Positions 44,329 through 57,433 of a stretch of 64,000 nt of DNA are shown piece after piece (position 1 is the stretch's first letter; each line of letters begins with the position of its first letter). A program made the translations under genes and the position numbers. The notes beneath the pieces are model-generated. The model was not told the DNA's origin. It did no database searches and saw only the letters and a program-made list of their open reading frames with translations. Source of the DNA: Lachnospiraceae bacterium (GTDB taxonomy: Bacteria > Bacillota > Clostridia > Lachnospirales > Lachnospiraceae). The stretch lies in contig JAFQCK010000166.1 of NCBI GenBank assembly GCA_017416465.1, positions 1 to 64,000 on the forward strand, in the 5' to 3' direction.

Positions 44329-46041
44329 TTATTTTAAAATCCAATTTGATTTTTGCTGATTATCTGAATCCGTATCAATCACACCAGCTTTTTTCATGGA
44401 TGTCAGTAAATTACGAATCTTGTTTTCCTTTTGCGTATCTGAAAGTGCATCCGGCAACTTTTCCCAAAGAAGTTTTCTTATATCTTTCTTTTTCGCAATT
44501 TTGTACTGACGCAAATATTCTACAACTAAATCCTTATAATATTTGTCATCAAATCCCTTATTCTTAATATAACTTGTACCATCGTCAATACTCTTTGCTG
44601 CTGATGCTGATAAGAATAAACTTGTAATTCTTCCTTCAACAAGTTTCGCCACTCTTAGTTTATCCGCATCCACTTTATCAATCGGAAGTCCCTTCTGTAC
44701 ACGGTCAAGCAAGAATACAGTCTGCAAATCCAAATCCTGATGTTCATACAAAATATGCATATAATTGTCATCTAATGTTTTTCCATACACAGTAACTTCA
44801 ACTTGCATCCCTGTTGAAAAATTATAATCCGGCATTGGGAAATACTTTGCCTTTTGAATATTATAAGCACGTCTTATTCCTAACGTAGCAGTATCAATCA
44901 TATGAAATGAAACCATAGACTCTGCAAGAAGTTGATTTCTGTAAAAAGGCGGATTATAACTTACTTCCAAAACATTTTCAATCTTCTGTGGAATGAAATC
45001 TCCAGGATTCGTAAACTTAATCTTATCCTCAAATTCATTAACATAAATTCTTCCACCCAATTGGTAATTAGTATGTGCAATACAATTATTCAACAACTCT
45101 CGAATTAACCAACTATTATACTGTTCTGTCTCCATTGGAAATAACGTCATCTGATTGGGCATATATCTATAAGTCAAGTTACGGACTTTTGCAAACACTT
45201 TGTCAACCACATTGATAAATGGAATCTTGAAAATTTCATAATCTTTGTCCATTCCATCCGCCCCATATAATCTCCACATAATACTTGGTACAGAAGATAG
45301 TAAATAATCATAATCTGAATCTCCTAGCAGCACCATTCCTGCGTTGGTTATTTTCCCACCAATAATCAATTTAACTTTCGAAAGAAATTGTTCGTCACTC
45401 ATTTCATCTACTTCTTTTGAAATGTGTTCTTGATTCATCTTTTCTTTATACTTTTCTCTTGCCAATGCAATTGCAGTTTTATCAAGATGATCTATAGTTG
45501 CATTCTCAATAACCTGCTTAGACCAATCTTTTCTCTCCTGTGACCTTATTGCATCAATTTTATATTGTTTTAAAGGCACAAGACTTTCACCAGACCGCTC
45601 ATAATAATTTGTTCGCCAATCAGTAGGAATACCTGTAGCTGCTGCCGGCACCTTAAACATCAATACACGATATTCCTTTCCATCAGCTACAGGATAAATT
45701 TCAACAATTTCATAAAACGTCATTCCATTTGTTGTATCTCTTGAAATTTCATATTTAAATCTTTCAAGTATACTTGAATCACCTTGTTTATATGATGTGC
45801 CCACTAAATGCTTTATTTTATTCTTCTCGCTCACACCAAAAATAAGCCAACCATATTGCTGTTGTTTTAAATTAGCCTCATTACTTAATGCCGAAAAATA
45901 TCTACCTATTTTGTCTGTATCATAATTACTTTTTGCTTCCTTGAATTCAACTGTTTCATATTCCCAACGTTCCATTAAACTCTCAAGAATCTCATAATAT
46001 TCAGCCCCCTTTACTGATTTATCATACTGAAAAAAAGACAT
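44329..46041 (-). CDS. AlbA/Schlafen-type ATP-binding protein (COG2865-like)
   Basis: A 570-residue protein. The N-terminal domain (about 20-165) has the AlbA_2/Schlafen pattern: E-T-V-E-F-K-E-A, then the Y-G-W-L-I-F-G-V-S segment. The central part (about 270-400) contains R-E-L-L-N-N-C-I-A-H-T-N-Y, the N-box of a GHKL-like ATPase in this family. A C-terminal winged-helix follows. Such proteins are annotated as RNA/DNA-binding regulators or RecG-like and recur in defence islands. The ATG at 46041 has GGAG 7 nt upstream. Exact function unknown. Confidence 0.82.
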   Translation of the reverse strand: MSFFQYDKSVKGAEYYEILESLMERWEYETVEFKEAKSNYDTDKIGRYFSALSNEANLKQQQYGWLIFGVSEKNKIKHLVGTSYKQGDSSILERFKYEISRDTTNGMTFYEIVEIYPVADGKEYRVLMFKVPAAATGIPTDWRTNYYERSGESLVPLKQYKIDAIRSQERKDWSKQVIENATIDHLDKTAIALAREKYKEKMNQEHISKEVDEMSDEQFLSKVKLIIGGKITNAGMVLLGDSDYDYLLSSVPSIMWRLYGADGMDKDYEIFKIPFINVVDKVFAKVRNLTYRYMPNQMTLFPMETEQYNSWLIRELLNNCIAHTNYQLGGRIYVNEFEDKIKFTNPGDFIPQKIENVLEVSYNPPFYRNQLLAESMVSFHMIDTATLGIRRAYNIQKAKYFPMPDYNFSTGMQVEVTVYGKTLDDNYMHILYEHQDLDLQTVFLLDRVQKGLPIDKVDADKLRVAKLVEGRITSLFLSASAAKSIDDGTSYIKNKGFDDKYYKDLVVEYLRQYKIAKKKDIRKLLWEKLPDALSDTQKENKIRNLLTSMKKAGVIDTDSDNQQKSNWILK

Positions 46042-46329
46042 ATTATCACTCCGTTTCATAAAACTAGTCACTTACTATTTTGCTTTCGTTATATATAATT
46101 TTCTCATACATACTATAGACACTACTCATTTTACTTTCAAAAGGAGTTATATGATACTATGATACCATATAAACAGACTTCTTTGTCATATTATTTTCAG
46201 AAATTGCCAAGAAAAATCTAAAAATGACAAACCTGAGTTTCCTTCTCTATTAAAAACCATATTGACCTTAATAAAACTATTCCGATTTATTTTATATTCC
46301 ACAAACTGTCTTCTTTTAATATATCTTAA

Positions 46330-46755: not shown

Positions 46756-48948
46756 TTAATCATTACTTTTCAAATATTTTAATAAATCATCTCTTACTAA
46801 ATCATGCATTTTTATCTGTACTTTTGCAATCTCTTTCATTTTACCTGATTTATCTTTCTTTTCACTTTTCTCTACTTTTTCAATATCAAACTGCCCCATA
46901 TAATAGAAATCTGTACCTTCTGCATCGCTTTTCTTCACAAACATATGCTTATATCTTGCTTCACATACATCTTTCATATACTGACTGTCAGGACCTTTTC
47001 CAATCTGTGAATCCCACATAAATATCTGATTGTTAATAAACTCATCTGCATAATCCGGCTTACCACTTACATATTCTTCATTTTCTCCAGCTTCCGCCTT
47101 GTGATATGTAACAAATATACATACATTATCTTCAACACGTTTCATTCCATACATTGTTGAAGAAAAGTCCTTTCCCCAATTTAGTAATAAGCAGACATCA
47201 CGTCTTGAATATTTTTCATATAATACAAAAACTCCTCTTTTGTTTTTTTCATCACAGTAAATATCCTGATATCTTTTAAGTCCTAGCTTTAATAAATCAT
47301 TTATCTGTTTAGAAAATTCTGTGTGCTTCATTTTTTCTTCAAATGAACTTATTCTTTTTAAAAAGCTTTCATTAGATTTTTCAACATCTATTAATTCCAT
47401 TTGACTATATTTAATCAGTTCATCATCTTTACTAACAAATTTTCCTTCTAACACATCTATAGCATTATCTATCTCTTGATAATTCACAATGAATCCATAT
47501 TTTTCACTTATACTTCTTTGTATATGTGATTTACTAATCTGCTCGTTATTAGTTAATAGATTTAGTATTTCTAACTCATGAGGACGTTTTCCACTAGCAA
47601 TTGTTTTTGATAAATATTCTAATGTAATTTGTTCTTTTTCTGTAAACATTTCCAAAGAATAATCTTTTTCCATTTTATCTAAAAACACATTAAACGTTTT
47701 GTAGTTAGAAAGAATAAGCATTGGATCCACTTCACCATTCTCATAAAAATCCATAAGATACGGAATTCTTCCAAGACGATTTTTCAGATTTCTATAACTT
47801 GTTTTTATTATATCCTTAACACCTTTCATAACATCAATTGAATTAAAGATACGTTTTTTTGAAATCTCATCAAAATGAATTGTCGAAGCTCCCGGTATTA
47901 TATTATTTCCACTTGTGACATATTTTCTAATAGTATCTTTGTTATAGCTTCTATCTCCTGACAAAGCTACCGGTATCATAAAATTGTTCAAATAATTTCC
48001 TATAAAATCTAATATAACCACATATTCTTTTTCATCAAACTTTCTAAGACCTCGACCTAGTTGTTGAACAAATACAACCGGCGACTCTGTTGGTCTAAGC
48101 ATGATAATCTGATTAATTTCCGGTACATCTACACCCTCGTTAAATATATCTACTGTAAAAATATAATCCAACTGATTATCTACATCATTATCACTTGCTA
48201 ATCTTTCAATAACTCTTTCTCTTTTTTCTTGAGTATCTTCACCTGTTAAAGCTTCTGTTCTAAATCCTCTTTGATTAAATTTATCAGACAATTCTCTTGC
48301 CTCATCTTTTCTGCTGCAGAATACTAAACCTTTTACACGTTCACCACTATAACCATAAAAATTAGCTTTATCAATTATATAATCTACCCTTGCATCAGAT
48401 ATAAGCCTATTAAAGTTTTTAACCCCTACACTATCATCAAATACCACATCATTAATCTCTAATTCAGTAATTCCAAAATAATGAAACGGACATAACAAAT
48501 CTTCTTCGAGTGCCTGTTGTAACCTGATTTCATATGCTATTTGATGATTAAATATAGAATAAATATCATATTGATTTGTATCAGGTGATGCCGTCATCCC
48601 TAACCAGAAATTCGGTTTGAAATAACTCATTATTTTTTTATAGCTCTCCGCTCCTACATGATGCGCTTCATCTAAAACAATAACATCAAATTCATTTCTT
48701 CCATAAATAGTAAATATATCTTCTTTACTCATCATTTGCATAGTTGCAAATATAAAATCTGCGTCAAATTCTCTTCTATTTCCAGATACTATACCTAATG
48801 ATTTTGTTTTACCAAAAATCTTTTTATAGCTTTTTAGGGCTTGTTTTGCAATCTGTTCTCTATGAACTAGGAATAATGCTCTTTTAGGGTTTATTTCACG
48901 TAAAGCGAAGGCTGAGGCATAGGTTTTTCCGGTACCCGCTCGTGTCAA
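46756..48948 (-). CDS. DEAD/DEAH helicase of the DUF3427 type, N-terminally truncated
   Basis: A 730-residue SF2 helicase that begins directly at Walker A (A-G-T-G-K-T). Motif II D-E-A-H-H, motif III T-A-S-P, F-N-E-G-V-D-V-P and Q-L-G-R-G-L-R are intact, followed by a long C-terminal region typical of DUF3427 helicases. Family members are about 900-1000 residues, with a phospholipase-D-like nuclease domain before the helicase. That domain is absent. The frame stays open for about 50 codons upstream to a TAA near 49100 but encodes nothing recognisable; a GTG near 49070 could be used. The start is therefore uncertain and the gene may be damaged. Confidence 0.8.
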   Translation of the reverse strand: MTRAGTGKTYASAFALREINPKRALFLVHREQIAKQALKSYKKIFGKTKSLGIVSGNRREFDADFIFATMQMMSKEDIFTIYGRNEFDVIVLDEAHHVGAESYKKIMSYFKPNFWLGMTASPDTNQYDIYSIFNHQIAYEIRLQQALEEDLLCPFHYFGITELEINDVVFDDSVGVKNFNRLISDARVDYIIDKANFYGYSGERVKGLVFCSRKDEARELSDKFNQRGFRTEALTGEDTQEKRERVIERLASDNDVDNQLDYIFTVDIFNEGVDVPEINQIIMLRPTESPVVFVQQLGRGLRKFDEKEYVVILDFIGNYLNNFMIPVALSGDRSYNKDTIRKYVTSGNNIIPGASTIHFDEISKKRIFNSIDVMKGVKDIIKTSYRNLKNRLGRIPYLMDFYENGEVDPMLILSNYKTFNVFLDKMEKDYSLEMFTEKEQITLEYLSKTIASGKRPHELEILNLLTNNEQISKSHIQRSISEKYGFIVNYQEIDNAIDVLEGKFVSKDDELIKYSQMELIDVEKSNESFLKRISSFEEKMKHTEFSKQINDLLKLGLKRYQDIYCDEKNKRGVFVLYEKYSRRDVCLLLNWGKDFSSTMYGMKRVEDNVCIFVTYHKAEAGENEEYVSGKPDYADEFINNQIFMWDSQIGKGPDSQYMKDVCEARYKHMFVKKSDAEGTDFYYMGQFDIEKVEKSEKKDKSGKMKEIAKVQIKMHDLVRDDLLKYLKSND

Positions 48949-49113: not shown

Positions 49114-50886
49114 TCAAAACGAAAATCCGAACAATCTTCCCGAGTCATCTTCTGCATCTGTCAATTCTACTGCTATTTCATTTCCCGAAATTCTATATTT
49201 GTCATCCTTTGGTATATCACTCGACAAACATGTCAATATATATTGTATATTATATTCTCTTGACACTCGTCTTACCAAATCTAAATATTTTTTTTGTTTT
49301 CTAGGATCTAATGACTCTAAACAACCATCATGGTAAATAAATCTGTAGAATGAATTCCCCATATAATTTTTAATAATTGCTAAATCAAAACATGCACACA
49401 GCAATTTTTTATATGTGTGTCCTAATCCTTCTTCTGTTTCTTCATTATCTAAATTGTAAAAGGAGGTCATAAAATCGACATTACCACTGCTGTTTATATT
49501 TAACGAAATCATTGCATTATTATCCAATATCTCGAATACATAATCGTGAAAATCTTTTCTTATGCGTTTATATATTGATGTCGACTCTTCTATTTGTTGA
49601 TGCAACAGTGCCGTTTCTTTTTCCAAACGTCCTTTTAACTTATTAATATCCTCTTGTATCAACTTTACATTATCAATACTGTTTAACTCTGCATGATACC
49701 TTTCTATTTCTCTTTCAACATTTATCAAGTCATTTCTGTAAATATTATATTTTTCAAAGGTACTTGTTCCTCTCAAAACAGCTAGTAGTTCTTTTCTTTT
49801 TTCATTCTGACTACTTAATTCTTTGTCTAGCTGCAAAAGTCTAGCTGTTTTTGATTTCTTAGCAATATCCAAATATTTCATTCGTTCTTCCGAAACCTTT
49901 TGATTGAATTCAATCAATTCCTCATACTTTTTTACCAACTGTTCAGGGAAAAGTATACCAACTTCCTTGTATATACTAAGAACCTCTTCTAAATTATAAT
50001 TTACTTTAACTTTTAAGGATTCCTCTATTTGCTGTATTTCAAATTGTAAATTGTAACGTTCTGTATTCAGCTTAGCAATTGACGTTTCTACTAATTCAAT
50101 TGCTTCCCTATTTAATCCTACTTCCTTTTGATAGAAATCAAACTTATCTAGCCAAGTTTCAATTTCTTGTTTCTTTTCATTTGCAATATCTATTAAACCA
50201 TTTATTTTATCTCTTTCACCTGCATCAACCTTAAACTCATCTTTTACCTTGTCAATTAATTGTTCTTTTATTGAAATTTCAGTTTCAATATTATACTTAT
50301 TAATCATGTGCTCGCTATTAAAGCCGAGTAATTCAAATAAAATTGGTTTCCAGTCAACATCTTTTCCTTGATGTTTTTGCAACTTGAATATATCCTTATA
50401 ATCATCCTGTGTTCTCAAAAAATAGCCTGTAGTTTTTCTGTATTCTTGATTAGATAAAATATCAAAGTTCAATAATCTATTTAAAATAATTTTAGGATTA
50501 TTTTCATCTGCTCCAGTTAATGGCATATCCTCATAATCCCAATAAATACACTCTCTTGCATCAAGAGACTCTTCATGTAGCAATATTGAAATCTTTGTAT
50601 TCTTAGCAACCGCTCGTTTTATTGTTACGTATTTACCGGAATTGAGAAGTATCTCCAAATAGAATACATAATCACTAAAAATACTTTTTTTCAGGAAGTG
50701 ACCTTTTTTCAATTCTTTTAATAACATAAAGTCAATTAATGCAATTAATGTACTTTTTCCTAAATTATGTGCATCTTGACTTAAATTTGATTCATTTGTC
50801 ACTTCACCCAAAACGACATTGAATTCCGTATTAAATTTAACCATTTTAAACTTAGCATCGGATGAATACAACTTACTTAATTTCAT
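49114..50886 (-). CDS. ABC-3C system ATPase (DUF2326, SMC-like)
   Basis: A 590-residue SMC/RecN-like ATPase. Residues 1-60 form the N-terminal half with a Walker A-type N-L-G-K-S-T-L. Long coiled coils (about 170-430) separate it from the C-terminal half (about 470-590), which includes G-L-G-H-T-Y-K-K-L-L-C-A-C-F-D and Y-H-D-G-C-L-E-S-L-D-P. This matches DUF2326 ATPases of ABC-three-component systems proposed to act against mobile DNA. Its ATG overlaps the middle-component stop by 4 nt. It probably senses invading DNA or DNA ends and activates the partner encoded upstream. Confidence 0.85.
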   Translation of the reverse strand: MKLSKLYSSDAKFKMVKFNTEFNVVLGEVTNESNLSQDAHNLGKSTLIALIDFMLLKELKKGHFLKKSIFSDYVFYLEILLNSGKYVTIKRAVAKNTKISILLHEESLDARECIYWDYEDMPLTGADENNPKIILNRLLNFDILSNQEYRKTTGYFLRTQDDYKDIFKLQKHQGKDVDWKPILFELLGFNSEHMINKYNIETEISIKEQLIDKVKDEFKVDAGERDKINGLIDIANEKKQEIETWLDKFDFYQKEVGLNREAIELVETSIAKLNTERYNLQFEIQQIEESLKVKVNYNLEEVLSIYKEVGILFPEQLVKKYEELIEFNQKVSEERMKYLDIAKKSKTARLLQLDKELSSQNEKRKELLAVLRGTSTFEKYNIYRNDLINVEREIERYHAELNSIDNVKLIQEDINKLKGRLEKETALLHQQIEESTSIYKRIRKDFHDYVFEILDNNAMISLNINSSGNVDFMTSFYNLDNEETEEGLGHTYKKLLCACFDLAIIKNYMGNSFYRFIYHDGCLESLDPRKQKKYLDLVRRVSREYNIQYILTCLSSDIPKDDKYRISGNEIAVELTDAEDDSGRLFGFSF

Positions 50887-51119
50887 ATTATCAACTCCAA
50901 CAAATCTTCTTTACTAGAATAATTTATCTTACCTAACAAAAACAAAAAATTTAATGCATTTTGAAAAACATGCTTGCTTTCTTCACCGACTTTATTCTGT
51001 ACCTGTTTCAAAGTAGCATTGTATCGCATAGCTCCATTTTCATCTAAAACTTTTATTATTATTGCCGCAACATTTAGTATGCTCATATTGTAATCTGTAT
51101 ATTTATTTGGCGTTATCAT
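50883..51119 (-). CDS. ABC-3C middle component
   Basis: A 78-residue protein starting M-I-T-P-N-K-Y and predicted to form a small winged-helix (with a hydrophobic A-L-N-F-L-F-L-L-G-K-I-N-Y ending). This size, start and position between a CTD-bearing protein and a DUF2326 ATPase match the 'middle component' of ABC-three-component systems. It should bridge the ATPase and the effector. It overlaps the ATPase by 4 nt and follows the upstream gene after 1 nt, so the three are one translational unit. Confidence 0.8.
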   Translation of the reverse strand: MITPNKYTDYNMSILNVAAIIIKVLDENGAMRYNATLKQVQNKVGEESKHVFQNALNFLFLLGKINYSSKEDLLELII

Positions 51120-51120
51120 T

Positions 51121-51675
51121 TCACTTTCTCCTTCCTATATCACAGTTCCAATACATGTAATTAAGAAAAACTACAATATTTACTGCATCAATCGTAACAC
51201 CACTAATAGCAATACGTCTTACTAATGTGCTAACTATATCGTCTAAGACTTCTTCGAAAGCACCAAATTTATCTCGCTTTGCTGTTATTGAATGTTTTAG
51301 AAAACACGCTACCTTTCTGTACTTTTTTAAAGCCTCTTTATTTTGTGGCGACTTCAAAAAGTCATCAATCTTATAAAATAACGGAAGAAAGTCATCACAT
51401 ATAACTTGAAAATACTCTGGTGATAACTTATTCAATTCATTTTTTCTTTCCTTTTCAACAAGATCGAATTCCAAATCATTATTCTCTCCATCATCAAATT
51501 CATCAAACAAATCTATATTTTCTTCAAATTGTTCAATTACATTAAATATATCTTTCTCATACACATTAATATGTATATGTTCATGATTTTGAAAATAATT
51601 TTTTATATTAACGTCCCCTTGCGCTTGTACATTGCCATTCCCATTCGATATCGTTTGTTCACTTGAATTAAACAT
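51121..51675 (-). CDS. ABC-3C component with NGNGNVQAQGD motif and C-terminal domain
   Basis: A 184-residue protein. The N-terminus has the motif I-S-N-G-N-G-N-V-Q-A-Q-G-D-V-N-I-K-N (about 9-26), a beta-rich pattern that recurs in the neighbouring membrane protein. An acidic linker follows, then a helical C-terminal domain (about 80-184) like the ABC-3C CTD that docks onto ATPase and middle component. No nuclease or toxin motif is seen, so the effector function may lie in the membrane protein encoded just upstream. Spacing to neighbours is 1-2 nt. Confidence 0.75.
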   Translation of the reverse strand: MFNSSEQTISNGNGNVQAQGDVNIKNYFQNHEHIHINVYEKDIFNVIEQFEENIDLFDEFDDGENNDLEFDLVEKERKNELNKLSPEYFQVICDDFLPLFYKIDDFLKSPQNKEALKKYRKVACFLKHSITAKRDKFGAFEEVLDDIVSTLVRRIAISGVTIDAVNIVVFLNYMYWNCDIGRRK

Positions 51676-51677
51676 CT

Positions 51678-51878
51678 TTATTCCTCATCACCTTGTACAT
51701 TTTGCTTAACATCTCCGCCAGCTTGTACATTGTTATCTCCATTGGTTATAGTTTGATTTATCGTATTTTTCATGTTTCTATTACTAATTTTTTGATTTCT
51801 TTTAATAACAATAGATGATACACCTATAATTGCAACTACCAATGCTACAATCCATCCAATTACATCCTTAACGTCCAT
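51678..51878 (-). CDS. Small membrane protein of the ABC-3C cassette
   Basis: A 66-residue protein with one N-terminal membrane helix (about 5-25), a basic segment (R-N-Q-K-I) and a tail with T-I-T-N-G-D-N-N-V-Q-A-G-G-D-V. The tail copies the motif of the next protein, so the two may interact through matching beta strands. It is the first gene of the cassette, with a GGAGG site before the ATG and a 2-nt gap to the next gene. A single-helix effector that perturbs the membrane when released or oligomerised is plausible but unproven. Confidence 0.7.
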   Translation of the reverse strand: MDVKDVIGWIVALVVAIIGVSSIVIKRNQKISNRNMKNTINQTITNGDNNVQAGGDVKQNVQGDEE

Positions 51879-51921
51879 TTTATTTCCTCCTTCTTAAACG
51901 AATACATATATTATAATTTTA

Positions 51922-52581
51922 TCATTTTTTATATTGCTTGTCATTATATTCCTTAAAATTTTCATCCCGAAACTTCCACTTAATCTCAACCCTCTCCCTA
52001 TCATACACAACAATCTCCGCCACGAAAGCATCCACGATTTCCTTGTTCAGTTTCTGCAGTTTCATCTGTCCTTCCAGCATTTCAAAACCGGTCACTTCCG
52101 GCAGGTCCACTTGAGCCATTTTGCTGACTGCTGCCTTCTGCTTTTCGATATTATCCTGCATGCGCACAAGCAACTGCTCGTAGGTCTTTTTATGTTCCAG
52201 GTAGGTTTCTCTGTCGGTCATGCCAAGCTTGTAGCTTTCGTAAGCATCACGCAAATCCTTATTGATACGCTCATAGCTTTTCTCCATATCAAGCAGATGC
52301 TTTTCTGCCAGCGCCAGGCACTGTGCCAGCTTCTCGCTCTGCATATCCACAATCTTTCTGGAGTCCACCCACATATCAATGAACAGCTGCAGGGACTTCA
52401 TCACCACCTCTTCCATAGTCGAATCAAGAACGCTGATATTGCACTTGCCATCTGCCTTATCCAGATAATGCTTGGCACAGTAATACTTCGGGCGACCGGC
52501 ATAGGAATGGGACAAACGATGCCCACAGTTACCGCATATCATTTTACCGGTCAGACACCTCCGGGAATTACAGACGGCCAC
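51922..52581 (-). pseudogene. C-terminal remnant of a large serine recombinase
   Basis: The reading frame encodes the recombinase zinc-ribbon (G-K-M-I-C-G-N-C-G-H, then Y-Y-C-A-K-H-Y-L and C-N-I) and a coiled-coil, ending in V-E-I-K-W-K-F-R-D, the usual C-terminus of TnpX/TndX-like recombinases. The catalytic and main DNA-binding domains are missing: translation upstream ends at a TGA just before the GTG at 52581. Base composition is visibly more GC-rich than the surroundings, indicating a different origin. It is evidence that the island was once carried by a mobile element. Confidence 0.85.
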
Positions 52582-53551: not shown

Positions 53552-53721
53552 ACAAATACCTCCCATTAAATATTCTTCATAAACATCACTATAGTTCCTT
53601 GTATCTCATAATTATTGTTACTATATAGTATCATTTTTATCAATATTACCACCCCAACATAAATCTTAATTTTATTTAAAATAATACATTCGAACATATG
53701 TTTTGTCAATAATTTTTTTGC

Positions 53722-53749
53722 TTACACTGCTAATATTCTTTGATATAAT
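53722..53749 (+). promoter_or_regulatory. Possible promoter of the restriction genes
   Basis: TTACAC (53722-53727) and TATAAT (53744-53749) are separated by 16 bp, 50 nt upstream of the first restriction gene. Confidence 0.55.
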
Positions 53750-53798
53750 TATTTTGTCTATTTTCGACAAATATTTTTGTTTACAAAGGAGAATTCTT

Positions 53799-54608
53799 AT
53801 GGCTTTTGATAATTCAAATATGACTCTTAGTGAAATTGAGAAACTAGAGCATAAATACCTAATGAAATACTGGTATTTCTTAAAATTCGTAGAGGATGAG
53901 ATTGTTAGAGGGATGTTATCAATGGAAGACATTCGAAATGACTGGCAAGGTTTATATGGAAACGAAGATGGAGGAATTTCGCAATTTGATGTAGGTAGCG
54001 AACGAATCGTTTACGCTCTACTTAATGGAAAAATTGCCGGACAACCTAACTCTTGTCCCGTTAGTTCTGATTTATTCTTTGAAGTAGAAGATGCTTATAT
54101 CCATATTGATTTAAAAAGTGTTACCACTAGCGAAGGTACAACTAGACAAGACAATATTGGTGATTTTAACACTTGTATTTTTGTTGGAGAAAATCAAAAC
54201 TCCTATGCTGGAACAATAATTAAAAACGGAGGACGCCCTACTGAATATCACGAAGAATATTCTCCAAATTTGCCTACCTACTATAGTAAATCCAACGGAG
54301 ACAAAAAAATAACATTAACATATTTCGTATGTCTGCTTAACAGTTCCGTCACCCAAAGATGTGAACTTATATCTATTATGAGTTTGCCTAATGGACGCTT
54401 ACAGGAACACTATGGTTCAAGACCTCTGAAAGCCGGCAAAAATCCCGGTAAAGCAAGATATAATTTCAGTGAAGTTCCTACTTTCGAACTACTTGAAGGA
54501 AATAAAAAACGTGTGCGTATAATACACAAAAACCCCAATATGTCAGATTATGTAAAAGGTAAATTGAATTTCTACTTAGAAAACTTTGACCCACAAATTG
54601 ACGAATGA
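53799..54608 (+). CDS. Probable type II restriction endonuclease subunit A
   Basis: A 269-residue protein. The segment C-P-V-S-S-D-L-F-F-E-V-E-D-A-x4-I-D-L-K-S has the D/E...D-x-K arrangement of PD-(D/E)XK nucleases. A similar segment occurs in the next gene, and the two share a later E-L-x-x-I-S-x-P-x-G-x-L block, so they are paralogues. The ATG at 53799 has AAGGAG 7 nt upstream; the hydrophobic stretch upstream in frame is not part of it. It stops 38 nt before the second gene starts. Linkage to a cytosine methyltransferase supports the restriction role. The recognition sequence is unknown. Confidence 0.75.
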   Translation: MAFDNSNMTLSEIEKLEHKYLMKYWYFLKFVEDEIVRGMLSMEDIRNDWQGLYGNEDGGISQFDVGSERIVYALLNGKIAGQPNSCPVSSDLFFEVEDAYIHIDLKSVTTSEGTTRQDNIGDFNTCIFVGENQNSYAGTIIKNGGRPTEYHEEYSPNLPTYYSKSNGDKKITLTYFVCLLNSSVTQRCELISIMSLPNGRLQEHYGSRPLKAGKNPGKARYNFSEVPTFELLEGNKKRVRIIHKNPNMSDYVKGKLNFYLENFDPQIDE

Positions 54609-54646
54609 TTATTAAACAAAAACAAACATTCTATACGAGGTGGAAT

Positions 54647-55336
54647 ATGTTAGCAAATACAGATATACAATATTTAGAGAAAAAATACTTTGAAATTTTG
54701 AGTGATTTGTTTAGCAGAAATTTAGGAGAAATAATTACTCAAATTTACAGTCAAGAATCGATTATCACACCTAGTGCAACAGCAAAATCTAATACAATAG
54801 AACATTCCGTTGAAAATATTGTAGAAGGAATTATTTTTTCCCAGCTAGGTTGGAAAGTATGTTCATTACCCGTTTCTTCAGATTCATGTTTTGAAGTTGG
54901 GGATGCCATAGTTAATATAGACGCAAAATCTATTAAAGATACTGATGGTGATGCTACTGGAAACAAAGTAAATTTACAAAGAACACAAACATCCTATTCA
55001 CATGGAAGAACTATTTCATTCACTGGGACAGGCCATACAAGGACTTGGGAACCAAAATTAAAAACATATGAAAAACATAAAATTTTTGGCGAAATTCCCA
55101 ACCTAACATATATTTTTAAAGCTATTTACTCAAATACAAATCTAGTAGAGGAATTATATCTCATTTCGATTCCACATGGACAATTGTACAATATTTTTAA
55201 GGATGATATTCTTCAAAAAGGAAGAGATCGTTATAATGGCGCCCCCACCTTAGGAAATATACGATTTCTGACAGATGAAATAATCAAAAAAAGAGGACAA
55301 GGATGGAGAGTAAAATTGCTCTTTAAAAGGAAGTAA
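54647..55336 (+). CDS. Probable type II restriction endonuclease subunit B
   Basis: A 229-residue paralogue of subunit A. It carries L-P-V-S-S-D-S-C-F-E-V-G-D-A-x4-I-D-A-K-S with the same nuclease-like D-x-K signature, and the later L-Y-L-I-S-I-P-H-G-Q-L block. Each subunit keeps its own putative active-site residues, so a heterodimer with one active site per strand is possible, or sequential duplication of one enzyme. The ATG at 54647 has GAGGTGG upstream. It ends at a bidirectional hairpin convergent with the EVE-domain gene. Confidence 0.75.
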   Translation: MLANTDIQYLEKKYFEILSDLFSRNLGEIITQIYSQESIITPSATAKSNTIEHSVENIVEGIIFSQLGWKVCSLPVSSDSCFEVGDAIVNIDAKSIKDTDGDATGNKVNLQRTQTSYSHGRTISFTGTGHTRTWEPKLKTYEKHKIFGEIPNLTYIFKAIYSNTNLVEELYLISIPHGQLYNIFKDDILQKGRDRYNGAPTLGNIRFLTDEIIKKRGQGWRVKLLFKRK

Positions 55337-55390
55337 CGAACACTTAAACTCAAAGATGTACTCATGTTACTCCCTCAACTTATGATAAAT

Positions 55391-55418
55391 AAACAGAGGT
55401 GTTTTATGCCCTCTGTTC
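55391..55418. terminator. Bidirectional hairpin between restriction and EVE genes
   Basis: AACAGAGG (55392-55399) and CCTCTGTT (55410-55417) form an 8-bp stem. It overlaps the stop codon of the EVE-domain gene. Confidence 0.7.
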
Positions 55419-55838
55419 TCTTATTCTTTGATATATTACATTATAATCATGTTCACTTAGGCATCTGAAACTTCCTTGTACCTGACTTTCCCACTTCACT
55501 TTGTTCTTGATAAACTCCAAGCCATCCCATATATCCTTTATATAGACACCTTCTGCAAAATCATCTATATATGTAATTGGCTTCGTATGAATTCTATGTG
55601 GCCATAATTCATAAAGGTCATCCCAAATAGGTTTTTCTGAGTAAAAATATTCGCCTACAACTTCAACCGCCGCCATAAACTTCGATTGCTTTGTCACACA
55701 ATATATTATCTTGTCACTAATTTCCATCTGCTGTAATGATTTTTTATTTCGTTCAGGAAATCCAGCACATGAAAACTGATTATCACTGTCCCATTCATAA
55801 TCAATTTCGTTGGTGAAATTCATATAATAATTTGGCAT
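55404..55838 (-). CDS. EVE/PUA-like domain protein
   Basis: A 144-residue protein with the EVE-type core: Y-Y-M-N at the start, I-S-D-K-I-I-Y-C-V-T-K-Q-S-K-F-M-A-A-V-E-V (about 42-62), and the W-P-H-R-I segment (about 80-84). EVE domains bind modified bases in nucleic acids and are common next to modification-dependent or R-M genes. It starts 23 nt after the methyltransferase stop and has GGAGG 8 nt upstream of its ATG, so the two are co-transcribed. A role as reader of the methyltransferase product is inferred. Confidence 0.75.
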   Translation of the reverse strand: MPNYYMNFTNEIDYEWDSDNQFSCAGFPERNKKSLQQMEISDKIIYCVTKQSKFMAAVEVVGEYFYSEKPIWDDLYELWPHRIHTKPITYIDDFAEGVYIKDIWDGLEFIKNKVKWESQVQGSFRCLSEHDYNVIYQRIREQRA

Positions 55839-55861
55839 ACTTCATTCCTCCAAATACTACA

Positions 55862-57433
55862 TCACTCATTATTTTGCAGTTCGTTGTGTTGTATGATTGC
55901 TTCACTTATACCTGTTGCAATTTTAGTTGCCAACTTAACTGGAACAGCATTACCAATCTGTGTATACATCTTATTTAAGCTACCTGTAAACTCATATTCC
56001 ACAGGAAATGTTTGAAGTATCGCACATTCTCTCGCACTCAATCTACGTTTTTTATTAACATGGATTTCTGGACTTGTTGCAGTAATTGTATCGCTTGGTC
56101 TATCCCAGTTTGTAATTCTCAAAGATTGTTCAAATTTAATTTCTTTTTCAACCAATGTTGTTACTACTTCATCATATTTGTCATCAAATCCCATAATCTT
56201 TTTTAATTCCCACCAATCTTCTGGTTTAGGGATACTTCCTGAATTATTATCTTTTCTGAACCAATGACCTGCCGTATGAGAATAACCAAAGTGTTCATCT
56301 ACACGTTTTGTAGTCCATCCTGATTTATCTCTCCAATATCTCAGATAATCACATATATCATGCTGATTAACTTCATATTTGCGTCCCCAAAATGTATCTG
56401 CTACATTTTCAGATGCAATATGATTTTTTACTGTAAACTCATCACATTCCTTGTCAATTCCAAGAATTGAATAAAAACTGTCTACATCCACTATATTAGT
56501 TTTCTTTATATGCTCTTCTAATTCTCTACGTGTTATAGTAATTCCATTTTTGGTTAATTTTTTATTTGACAAGAATCCTATTGCTTGTTCTGTAGTTATT
56601 GCTGGTAACAATCCTTCTGGACTTTCAGAAACACCTTCCACATAATGCGTTGGCACCGGATATAGATTTTCTACTCCTATTCTGTTGCCTATAATAACAA
56701 CTCTTTCTCTTGCCTGCGGAACACCGTATTCAGCCGCATTTAATATACGAGCGTCAACTTTATAACCAATTACTTTCCCCTCATTATCTTTTAGGTTTTC
56801 AAAGTCCTTTTTAATCATATCAAATACTTTTCCACCTTCGATAGACAAAAGTCCTTTTACATTTTCCGCCACAAAGAATTTAGGCTTTTTATCAGAAATC
56901 ACTCTAAGCATTTCTTTATATAAGAAATTTCGCTTATCTTCCATGGAACGTCTTGTATTAGCTACAGAAAATCCCTGGCAGGGGAAACCTCCTATTATAA
57001 CATCCGGATTATCTGGAATATCATCACTTGAAATTTTCGTAATGTCACCATGTAAAATATGCTTCCCTACATTTTTTCTATAAGAATTTACTGCTTCCTC
57101 AAAAAAATCATTTGCCCAAATAATCTCAAATCCCGCATTAATAAAACCAATATCCATTCCACCAGCTCCTGAGAACATCGAAACAACCTTAAGTTTATTA
57201 GGGTCATTTTGAACAACAAACTCTTCATTTTCATCCTTTACAAGTTCAACAATATCACTGATATCACATTGTAAGGTATCACAAATTTTTACAAGAACAT
57301 CTGAACTAACCATTTCCTGCTTGCCAATTTTTGCAAGAGTACTGCTGCTAATTTTTGCCTGTTGACGCAAATCTGTCTTTGTCATCTTCCTATCTATCAA
57401 AATTTTCAATAGCTTATCATAACAAGCTTTCAT
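55862..57433 (-). CDS. DNA (cytosine-5) methyltransferase with N-terminal HTH
   Basis: A 523-residue modification enzyme. An N-terminal Cro/C1-type HTH (about 10-65) is followed by the m5C catalytic motifs: I (F-S-G-A-G-G-M-D), IV with the catalytic cysteine (G-G-F-P-C-Q-G-F-S), VI (A-E-N-V-K-G-L), VIII (Q-A-R-E-R-V-V-I-I-G) and X (I-G-N-A-V-P). A long region between VIII and IX, with G-Y-S-H-T-A-G-H-W-F-R, contains the target recognition part. The HTH allows autorepression, and a palindrome overlaps its promoter. It protects host DNA from the two nuclease-like proteins convergent with it. Confidence 0.93.
   Translation of the reverse strand: MKACYDKLLKILIDRKMTKTDLRQQAKISSSTLAKIGKQEMVSSDVLVKICDTLQCDISDIVELVKDENEEFVVQNDPNKLKVVSMFSGAGGMDIGFINAGFEIIWANDFFEEAVNSYRKNVGKHILHGDITKISSDDIPDNPDVIIGGFPCQGFSVANTRRSMEDKRNFLYKEMLRVISDKKPKFFVAENVKGLLSIEGGKVFDMIKKDFENLKDNEGKVIGYKVDARILNAAEYGVPQARERVVIIGNRIGVENLYPVPTHYVEGVSESPEGLLPAITTEQAIGFLSNKKLTKNGITITRRELEEHIKKTNIVDVDSFYSILGIDKECDEFTVKNHIASENVADTFWGRKYEVNQHDICDYLRYWRDKSGWTTKRVDEHFGYSHTAGHWFRKDNNSGSIPKPEDWWELKKIMGFDDKYDEVVTTLVEKEIKFEQSLRITNWDRPSDTITATSPEIHVNKKRRLSARECAILQTFPVEYEFTGSLNKMYTQIGNAVPVKLATKIATGISEAIIQHNELQNNE

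What the first reader, a model, noticed from the sequence alone, without database searches (positions are those of the whole stretch)
49114..51878. Four-gene ABC-3C type cassette with a duplicated NG-x-x-NVQA-x-GD motif
A DUF2326 SMC-like ATPase, a 78-residue middle component, a CTD-bearing protein and a single-helix membrane protein are packed with gaps of 1-2 nt and one 4-nt overlap. Seen directly: the CTD protein (NGNGNVQAQGDV) and the membrane protein (NGDNNVQAGGDV) share a motif. Known: ABC-three-component systems pair ATPase, middle component and effector against mobile DNA. Inferred: the effector here is split into a CTD adaptor and a separate membrane protein that dock through the shared motif, with membrane damage as output.
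Basis: partly seen in the sequence, partly recalled or inferred. Interest (0 to 1): 0.88.

Follow-up and report, generated by a model that had tools for sequence, protein, structure and literature searches.

The report
Defence cassette with matched-motif membrane partner
A bacterial cassette of a DNA-sensing defence family lacks the usual DNA-cutting part and instead has a tiny membrane protein whose tail carries the same short motif as its neighbour, which suggests that the two stick together to harm the membrane when an invader is sensed.

Summary
The cassette (51878 to 49114, minus strand) is an ABC-3C (Lamassu-superfamily) operon: DUF2326 ATPase, middle component 8, a CTD12 protein and a 66-residue single-helix membrane protein. 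The CTD12 protein has no effector domain, only a 39-residue extension with the motif.

Of 40 loci with an ATPase of this clade, 35 could be classed. In 26 CTD12 is fused to a nuclease. In 9 it stands alone, and all 9 have an abutting small upstream gene whose tail matches the CTD12 protein's N-terminus; 0 of 26 fused ones do. The motif differs between loci but matches within each: own-partner pairing is the best of 40,320 assignments over 8 loci. Eight of the 9 small proteins have a hydrophobic helix; L039 does not. On the ATPase tree the split state needs at least three changes.

Best reading: nuclease output was replaced, more than once, by a membrane effector recruited through a homotypic motif, analogous to amyloid signalling (BASS) of bacterial NLR systems. 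Docking, amyloid nature and membrane damage are inferred, not shown. New variant of a known kind. The founding ABC-3C and BASS papers (both 2020) were not held.

The parts
51916..51944 (-). promoter-like site (ATGACA-17-TAAAAT, TG before the second hexamer) upstream of the first gene
   Evidence: consensus scan; 12 such sites in the region against 18.9 expected in shuffles, so weak evidence
51678..51878 (-). 66-aa single-helix membrane protein, proposed effector
   Evidence: hydrophobic 19-mer with mean hydropathy 2.74; no significant Pfam family
51804..51860 (-). predicted transmembrane helix (residues 7-25); the 12 residues after it have net charge +5, so the tail is predicted cytosolic
51708..51743 (-). 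motif copy 1, NGDNNVQAGGDV (residues 46-57; aligned block residues 36-57)
51121..51675 (-). 184-aa stand-alone CTD12 protein, proposed adaptor
   Evidence: PF20279 2.6e-19
51610..51645 (-). motif copy 2, NGNGNVQAQGDV (residues 11-22; aligned block residues 1-22)
51133..51558 (-). CTD12 domain (residues 40-181)
50883..51119 (-). middle component 8 (78 aa)
   Evidence: PF20295 6.3e-11
49114..50886 (-). SMC/Rad50-like ATPase with C-terminal DUF2326 (49117-49530), proposed sensor
   Evidence: PF10088 1.8e-26; PADLOC PDC-M68B 1.4e-54

Best explanation
This is a split-effector ABC-3C (Lamassu-superfamily) defence cassette. The DUF2326 ATPase with middle component 8 senses invading DNA and holds the CTD12 protein. 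In most relatives seen here CTD12 carries a fused nuclease; in this one the nuclease is replaced by a short N-terminal docking motif. The same motif sits on the cytosolic C-terminal tail of a separately encoded single-helix membrane protein. On activation, CTD12 proteins are released or clustered and their motifs stack with, and perhaps template, the tails of the membrane protein. Clustering of the helices then permeabilises or depolarises the membrane and stops the infected cell. Shown here: gene families, operon layout, recurrent co-occurrence, within-locus matching of the motif, predicted topology. Inferred: sensing, release, docking, the stacked or amyloid nature of the contact, membrane damage, defence.
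For: Families. Of 40 loci with an ATPase of this clade, 9 have stand-alone CTD12 (window, L010, L013, L019, L036, L039, L041, L042, L049), 26 have CTD12 fused to a nuclease (22 Mrr-like, 4 HNH-like by signature) and 5 could not be classed. A small upstream gene, abutting or overlapping, with a matching tail: 9 of 9 split, 0 of 26 fused (best z 2.4 among 73 upstream ORFs with any start codon). Fisher 1.4e-8, or 3.2e-7 with near-copies dropped (8 against 20); these treat loci as independent, which the tree shows they are not wholly. The motif differs between loci, yet cognate pairing is the single best of 40,320 assignments of 8 loci, and of 720 in a six-locus subset. A scan of 242 adjacent ORF pairs in 34 loci, not restricted to the cassette, gave 16 with score at least 35; all 9 split pairs are among them. 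In the related loci L041 and L049 motifs are more alike within a locus (86, 106) than between loci (52-58). Membrane anchors of L013, L019 and L036 are alike (z 9-13) while the L036 motif differs and follows its own CTD12. Flank charge puts the tail in the cytosol in the 7 non-redundant proteins with a helix. Published: on activation Lamassu LmuA is liberated and forms a homo-tetramer (PMC12409362, passage citing preprints), a natural seed for motif clustering.
Against: No structure, interaction or phenotype data. L039 has no clear transmembrane helix and the weakest match (z 3.9, equal to a spurious pair in L021; 9 of 2000 shuffles as high). L013's pair (z 5.0) is no higher than a spurious CTD-to-middle-component pair in L020 (z 5.0), and L013's CTD12 fits the tail from L019 (48) better than its own (39). 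L049's match is also perfect at DNA level over 62 nt, so part of the matching may come from recent duplication or exchange. A single helix in 66 aa need not form a pore: it could be only an anchor. The RHIM core [IV]Q[IVL]G (recalled) is not met (VQAG, VQAQ).
Confidence: 0.6

Rival explanations
1. Membrane tether: the small protein only holds the sensor complex at the membrane, and an unknown cellular factor or the ATPase itself is the output.
For: The small protein is little more than an anchor plus motif; in L039 the helix is replaced by a segment that looks amphipathic (by eye), fit for surface attachment.
Against: Small gene and fused nuclease exclude each other (9 of 9 against 0 of 26), as expected if the small protein takes over the nuclease's role.
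Confidence: 0.22
2. Inhibitor or antitoxin: the small protein binds the CTD12 protein through the motif and keeps the system off until infection disturbs the membrane.
For: The small gene comes first in the operon, and a matched pair would also suit a regulator and its target; a phage repressor and its neighbour (L037, L045) carry similar matched motifs.
Against: It would leave the cassette without any recognisable effector, as CTD12 (residues 40-181) and the motif fill the 184-aa protein.
Confidence: 0.1
3. The matching motifs are only a by-product of how the split arose (duplication of a linker segment between two adjacent genes or in a former fused gene) and have no docking role.
For: L049 has an exact 62-nt direct repeat, one copy in each gene, at spacing 82. 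In L013 and L019 motifs are not clearly more alike within than between loci (39, 60 against 28-47).
Against: In the seven other loci 30 of 78 codons for identical residues differ, so the protein was kept while DNA drifted. In the L041/L049 clade, both already split, motifs are more alike within than between loci.
Confidence: 0.12

Closest known systems
ABC-3C / Lamassu (DdmABC) systems
   Same: SMC-like ATPase, middle component and CTD protein in one operon (PMC10586767 section 9; PMC12409362 passages)
   Different: The effectors described there are domains at the N-terminus of the CTD protein; here the effector candidate is a separate membrane protein and the CTD protein carries only a short motif
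BASS amyloid signalling pairs (NLR with N-terminal motif, BELL membrane protein with C-terminal motif)
   Same: Adjacent or overlapping genes, motif at the N-terminus of the sensor side and the C-terminus of a protein with a hydrophobic helix, several motif families (PMC7889193 and PMC8086366 passages)
   Different: No NLR here; the sensor is an SMC-like ATPase; no BELL domain recognised; amyloid formation untested
Nuclease-protease pairs in Lamassu, AVAST and Hachiman
   Same: A separately encoded executor sits upstream of the core gene and is controlled by a module at that gene's N-terminus (PMC12799240 passages)
   Different: There coupling is by proteolysis of a pro-nuclease; here by a matched short motif, with a membrane protein
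Lamassu-Mem (name recalled; a search for it found no use of the term)
   Same: Membrane output in a Lamassu system (recalled)
   Different: Recalled as a membrane segment on LmuA itself, not a separate matched gene

Membership tests
ABC-3C / Lamassu | SMC/Rad50-like ATPase with a family C-terminal domain | tested here: met
   DUF2326 PF10088 1.8e-26, PADLOC PDC-M68B 1.4e-54
ABC-3C / Lamassu | small middle component between CTD gene and ATPase | tested here: met
   MC8 PF20295 6.3e-11, gene in the middle position
ABC-3C / Lamassu | third protein with an ABC-3C C-terminal domain | tested here: met
   CTD12 PF20279 2.6e-19
ABC-3C / Lamassu | effector domain fused N-terminal to the CTD (usual; I do not know it to be universal) | tested here: not met
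   only 39 residues precede CTD12 and no domain was found; CTD proteins of similar size in 8 further loci, one of them also scanned with Pfam (L036)
ABC-3C / Lamassu | defence against phage or plasmid | not testable with these tools
   needs experiment
BASS amyloid signalling | matched motif at N-terminus of sensor side and C-terminus of effector side in adjacent genes | tested here: met
BASS amyloid signalling | NLR (STAND NTPase) as sensor | tested here: not met
   no STAND or NLR domain listed for any of the four proteins at E up to 1
BASS amyloid signalling | BELL domain in the effector | tested here: inconclusive
   no Pfam family over its cut-off for the 7 of 9 small proteins scanned (L039 and L042 not scanned); no BELL model was looked for
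BASS amyloid signalling | motif forms amyloid and templates its partner | not testable with these tools
RHIM | core [IV]-Q-[IVL]-G (pattern recalled) | tested here: not met
   V-Q-A-G and V-Q-A-Q in the window; the aligned blocks of the other seven loci do not fit it either (by eye)

The most novel reading that the evidence does not exclude
SMC-type DNA sensors of the Lamassu superfamily repeatedly swapped their nuclease for a prion-like, motif-templated membrane executor. Amyloid-type signalling would then not be confined to NLR systems of filamentous bacteria but be a general plug that connects a sensor to a membrane effector, kept matched by co-evolution and by exchange of sequence between the two adjacent genes.
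Probability: 0.35. Interest if true: 0.9.

Novelty: new variant of a known kind. Interest (0 to 1): 0.74.

Why it matters
It would add a new kind of output (a separately encoded, motif-recruited membrane protein) to a family of DNA-sensing defence systems, and give eight diverse natural motif pairs on which the specificity of homotypic signalling in bacteria can be tested. A 2021 review asks whether signalling amyloids exist in pathways that do not depend on NLRs (PMC7889193, passage); this locus would make that question directly testable.

Tried and rejected
Rejected: chance similarity of the motif. Rejected: a pairing peculiar to the window (8 further loci). Rejected as a strict claim: RHIM membership (core not met). 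Left open: amyloid nature.

Led nowhere: tblastn of the 66-aa protein in plasmids (no match); CTD12 and ATPase in the phage collection (no match); CTD12 and ATPase single-sequence scans of viral contigs (no relative); DNA of L010 in E. coli genomes (no match); PDB profile searches with ATPase and CTD12 (no E-value below 0.028); literature search for motif letters (noise in the 15 of 68 listed). CTD12 family search: 3 of 299 and 2 of 397 genomes at E 0.001, of which 1 and 1 over the family cut-off, both the window's own genome; the weak matches in three other genomes (L003, L004, L006) were not followed. Holin and spanin profiles matched L036's small protein only weakly (E 0.0024 and 0.0094).

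Genome searches with the ATPase: 7 of 398, 1 of 13, 3 of 391 and 2 of 398 genomes at the limits used (samples overlap). Only the window's genome and L013 belong to this clade; L014-L018, L052 and L053 are distant DUF2326 loci with other partners and were not counted, nor were L055 and L056 (22-23% identity). L050, L051, L057 and L058 are second copies of loci already counted.

Rows dropped before the counts: L009 (CTD12 gene in two frames), L033 (CTD12 truncated), L043 (contig begins at the middle component), L046 (interrupted), L047 (contig begins inside the CTD gene; labelled as nuclease type in the tree by its likeness to L048). Of 24 plasmid records with CTD12 I fetched 5, and none of the further records. 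Segments for one search were cut by hand (tail after the helix; N-terminal extension before CTD12). A first Fisher value with 21 fused groups was replaced by one with the 20 groups counted. An argument from reading-frame remainders was dropped: it holds by construction.

Full report
What is there. On the minus strand, 51878 to 49114, four genes are packed with 2-nt and 1-nt gaps and one 4-nt overlap. In order of transcription they encode a 66-aa protein, a 184-aa protein, a 78-aa protein and a 590-aa ATPase. Profiles identify the last three as CTD12 (PF20279, 2.6e-19, residues 40-181), middle component 8 (PF20295, 6.3e-11) and DUF2326 (PF10088, 1.8e-26) of ABC-three-component systems; the ATPase also matches the PADLOC defence candidate PDC-M68B (1.4e-54). 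The 66-aa protein matches no Pfam family significantly and has one strongly hydrophobic segment, residues 7-25. A promoter-like site lies at 51944-51916, but such sites are no more frequent here than in shuffles.

The motif. The aligned block is 22 residues, 14 identical; 0 of 2000 shuffles reach its score. A search of the own genome assembly with the 66-aa protein finds one other match only, the N-terminus of the CTD12 protein (E 0.023).

Relatives. Nine have a stand-alone CTD12 protein of 176-204 aa. Twenty-six have CTD12 fused to a nuclease: 22 with an Mrr-like D[GS]GxD...QAK signature and 4 HNH-like (for L048 Pfam confirms both Mrr_cat and CTD12). Five could not be classed (L009, L033, L043, L046, L047). 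In each of the nine split loci a small gene abuts or overlaps the CTD12 gene upstream (gap +4 to -14), and the end of its product resembles the beginning of the CTD12 protein. None of the 26 fused loci has this: among 73 upstream reading frames, with any start codon, the best z is 2.4, while the seven split loci in the same scan give 4.3 to 12.8 (window and L013 have z 8.0 and 5.0). Some fused loci do have a hydrophobic or signal-peptide-like frame upstream (L026, L028, L029, L031, L032), but without a matching tail. Fisher p is 1.4e-8, or 3.2e-7 when near-copies are dropped (8 of 8 against 0 of 20); loci are not fully independent, so these overstate. In the annotation of L010 the small gene is only a hypothetical protein, next to the named ABC-three-component gene.

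The motif is matched, not fixed. The letters vary widely: GKENTVVGRD with GKNNKSAGRD (L013), GTNNRIAGRDIND with GNNNRVAHRDINE (L019), GDESPIQ with GDYSPIQ (L036), KNNSVSIINN with NNNSVAAVNN (L010), NNSNSNIVINGDQNINN with NNLNSNIVVGGNQTINN (L041), and 20 identical residues in L049. Over eight loci (L042 left out as a near-copy of L041), pairing each tail with its own CTD12 partner is the single best of 40,320 assignments (sum 517; non-cognate pairs average to 230), and the best of 720 when L041 and L019 are also dropped. Each cognate is first in its row and 7 of 8 are first in their column; the exception is L013, whose CTD12 fits the L019 tail better (48 against 39). Shuffles reach the cognate score 0 of 2000 times in six loci, 1 in L010 and 9 in L039. 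A scan of 242 adjacent pairs of ATG reading frames in 34 loci, including the whole minus strand of the window, gave 16 pairs with score 35 or more. All nine split pairs are among them, z 13.9 to 5.0 and L039 at 3.9. The others are two phage repressor pairs (L037, z 14.1; L045, z 7.9) and five weak ones, of which one in L020 also reaches z 5.0 and one in L021 z 3.9. So the test alone would not single out L013 and L039; their gene layout does.

Protein-level constraint and exchange. Of 98 codons for residues identical in both copies 30 differ, none of them among the 20 of L049, so in seven loci the protein was kept while DNA drifted. L049 instead has an exact 62-nt direct repeat, one copy in each gene, which points to recent exchange or duplication. 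In L041 and L049, both already split, motifs are more alike within a locus (86, 106) than between loci (52-58); in L013 and L019 this is not clear (39, 60 against 28-47).

Anchor and topology. The helix regions of L013, L019 and L036 are clearly alike (z 9 to 13), although L036 lies in another part of the ATPase tree and has a different motif, matched to its own partner. In the seven non-redundant proteins with a helix the residues after it carry net charge +1 to +5 and those before it -1 to +1, which predicts a cytosolic tail. L010's 89-aa protein appears, by eye, to have two hydrophobic segments. L039 has no convincing helix.

Evolution. On a tree of 36 ATPases the split state needs four changes, at least three forced by well-supported branches; the nuclease-type loci L047 and L048 group with the window, L013 and L019 (92/85, not starred), inside a starred set of eight that also holds L005 and L039. 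The tool warns of long branches (L010, L036, L005), so exact placement is unsure.

Mechanism. Published work states that on activation the Lamassu effector LmuA is freed and forms a homo-tetramer that switches on its nuclease (PMC12409362, passage citing preprints), and that in some Lamassu systems a separately encoded upstream nuclease goes with a protease fused to LmuA (PMC12799240, passages). The layout here fits a parallel: freed or clustered CTD12 proteins present their motifs, these stack with the tails of the membrane protein, and clustered helices damage the membrane. The arrangement of motif ends is that of BASS pairs, where NLRs carry the motif N-terminally and BELL proteins C-terminally (PMC7889193, passages). 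Docking, templating, membrane damage and defence are inference. Rivals (tether, inhibitor, by-product of gene splitting) are set out separately.

Novelty. Searches of the held library for ABC-3C, DUF2326, Lamassu with membrane or split effectors, and amyloid signalling with defence (listings), and passages of ten papers, with one section of one of them in full, showed no description of a motif-matched membrane partner in an ABC-3C system. The founding ABC-3C paper (NAR 2020) and the BASS paper (J Mol Biol 2020) are not held, nor are two Lamassu structure papers, so prior mention cannot be excluded.

Noticed in passing
L037 3912-4361 and 4369-4704; L045 3897-4370 and 4357-4704: A phage HTH repressor (profiles) and the next gene share the same kind of motif, for example GHNNIVAGRDV at the repressor's C-terminus and GDNNTVAGRDV at the neighbour's N-terminus (z 14.1 and 7.9). 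The motif may be a general pairing module outside defence.
   Followed up: partly
L049 5156-5217 and 5238-5299: Exact 62-nt direct repeat at spacing 82 that places the same motif in the small membrane gene and in the CTD12 gene.
   Followed up: partly
window 46756-48948: Helicase with DUF3427 that matches a type IV restriction enzyme profile only from position 250 of 953; the reading frame begins close to its nucleotide-binding motif, so the N-terminal part seems missing next to the cassette.
   Followed up: no
window 51922-52581: Fragment with a recombinase zinc-ribbon domain (PF13408) directly upstream of the cassette, which suggests arrival on a mobile element.
   Followed up: no
window 53703-57433: A C-5 cytosine methylase (55862-57433) lies near an opposite-strand ORF with a weak restriction-enzyme match (53703-54608, PADLOC REase_II 8.9e-6): a possible type II restriction-modification set.
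   Followed up: no
L039 5045-5209: The only one of the nine split loci whose small protein lacks a clear transmembrane helix (mean hydropathy 0.36-0.51).
   Followed up: no
window 44329-46071: Protein with Schlafen/AlbA_2 and HATPase_c_4 domains a few genes from the cassette.
   Followed up: no
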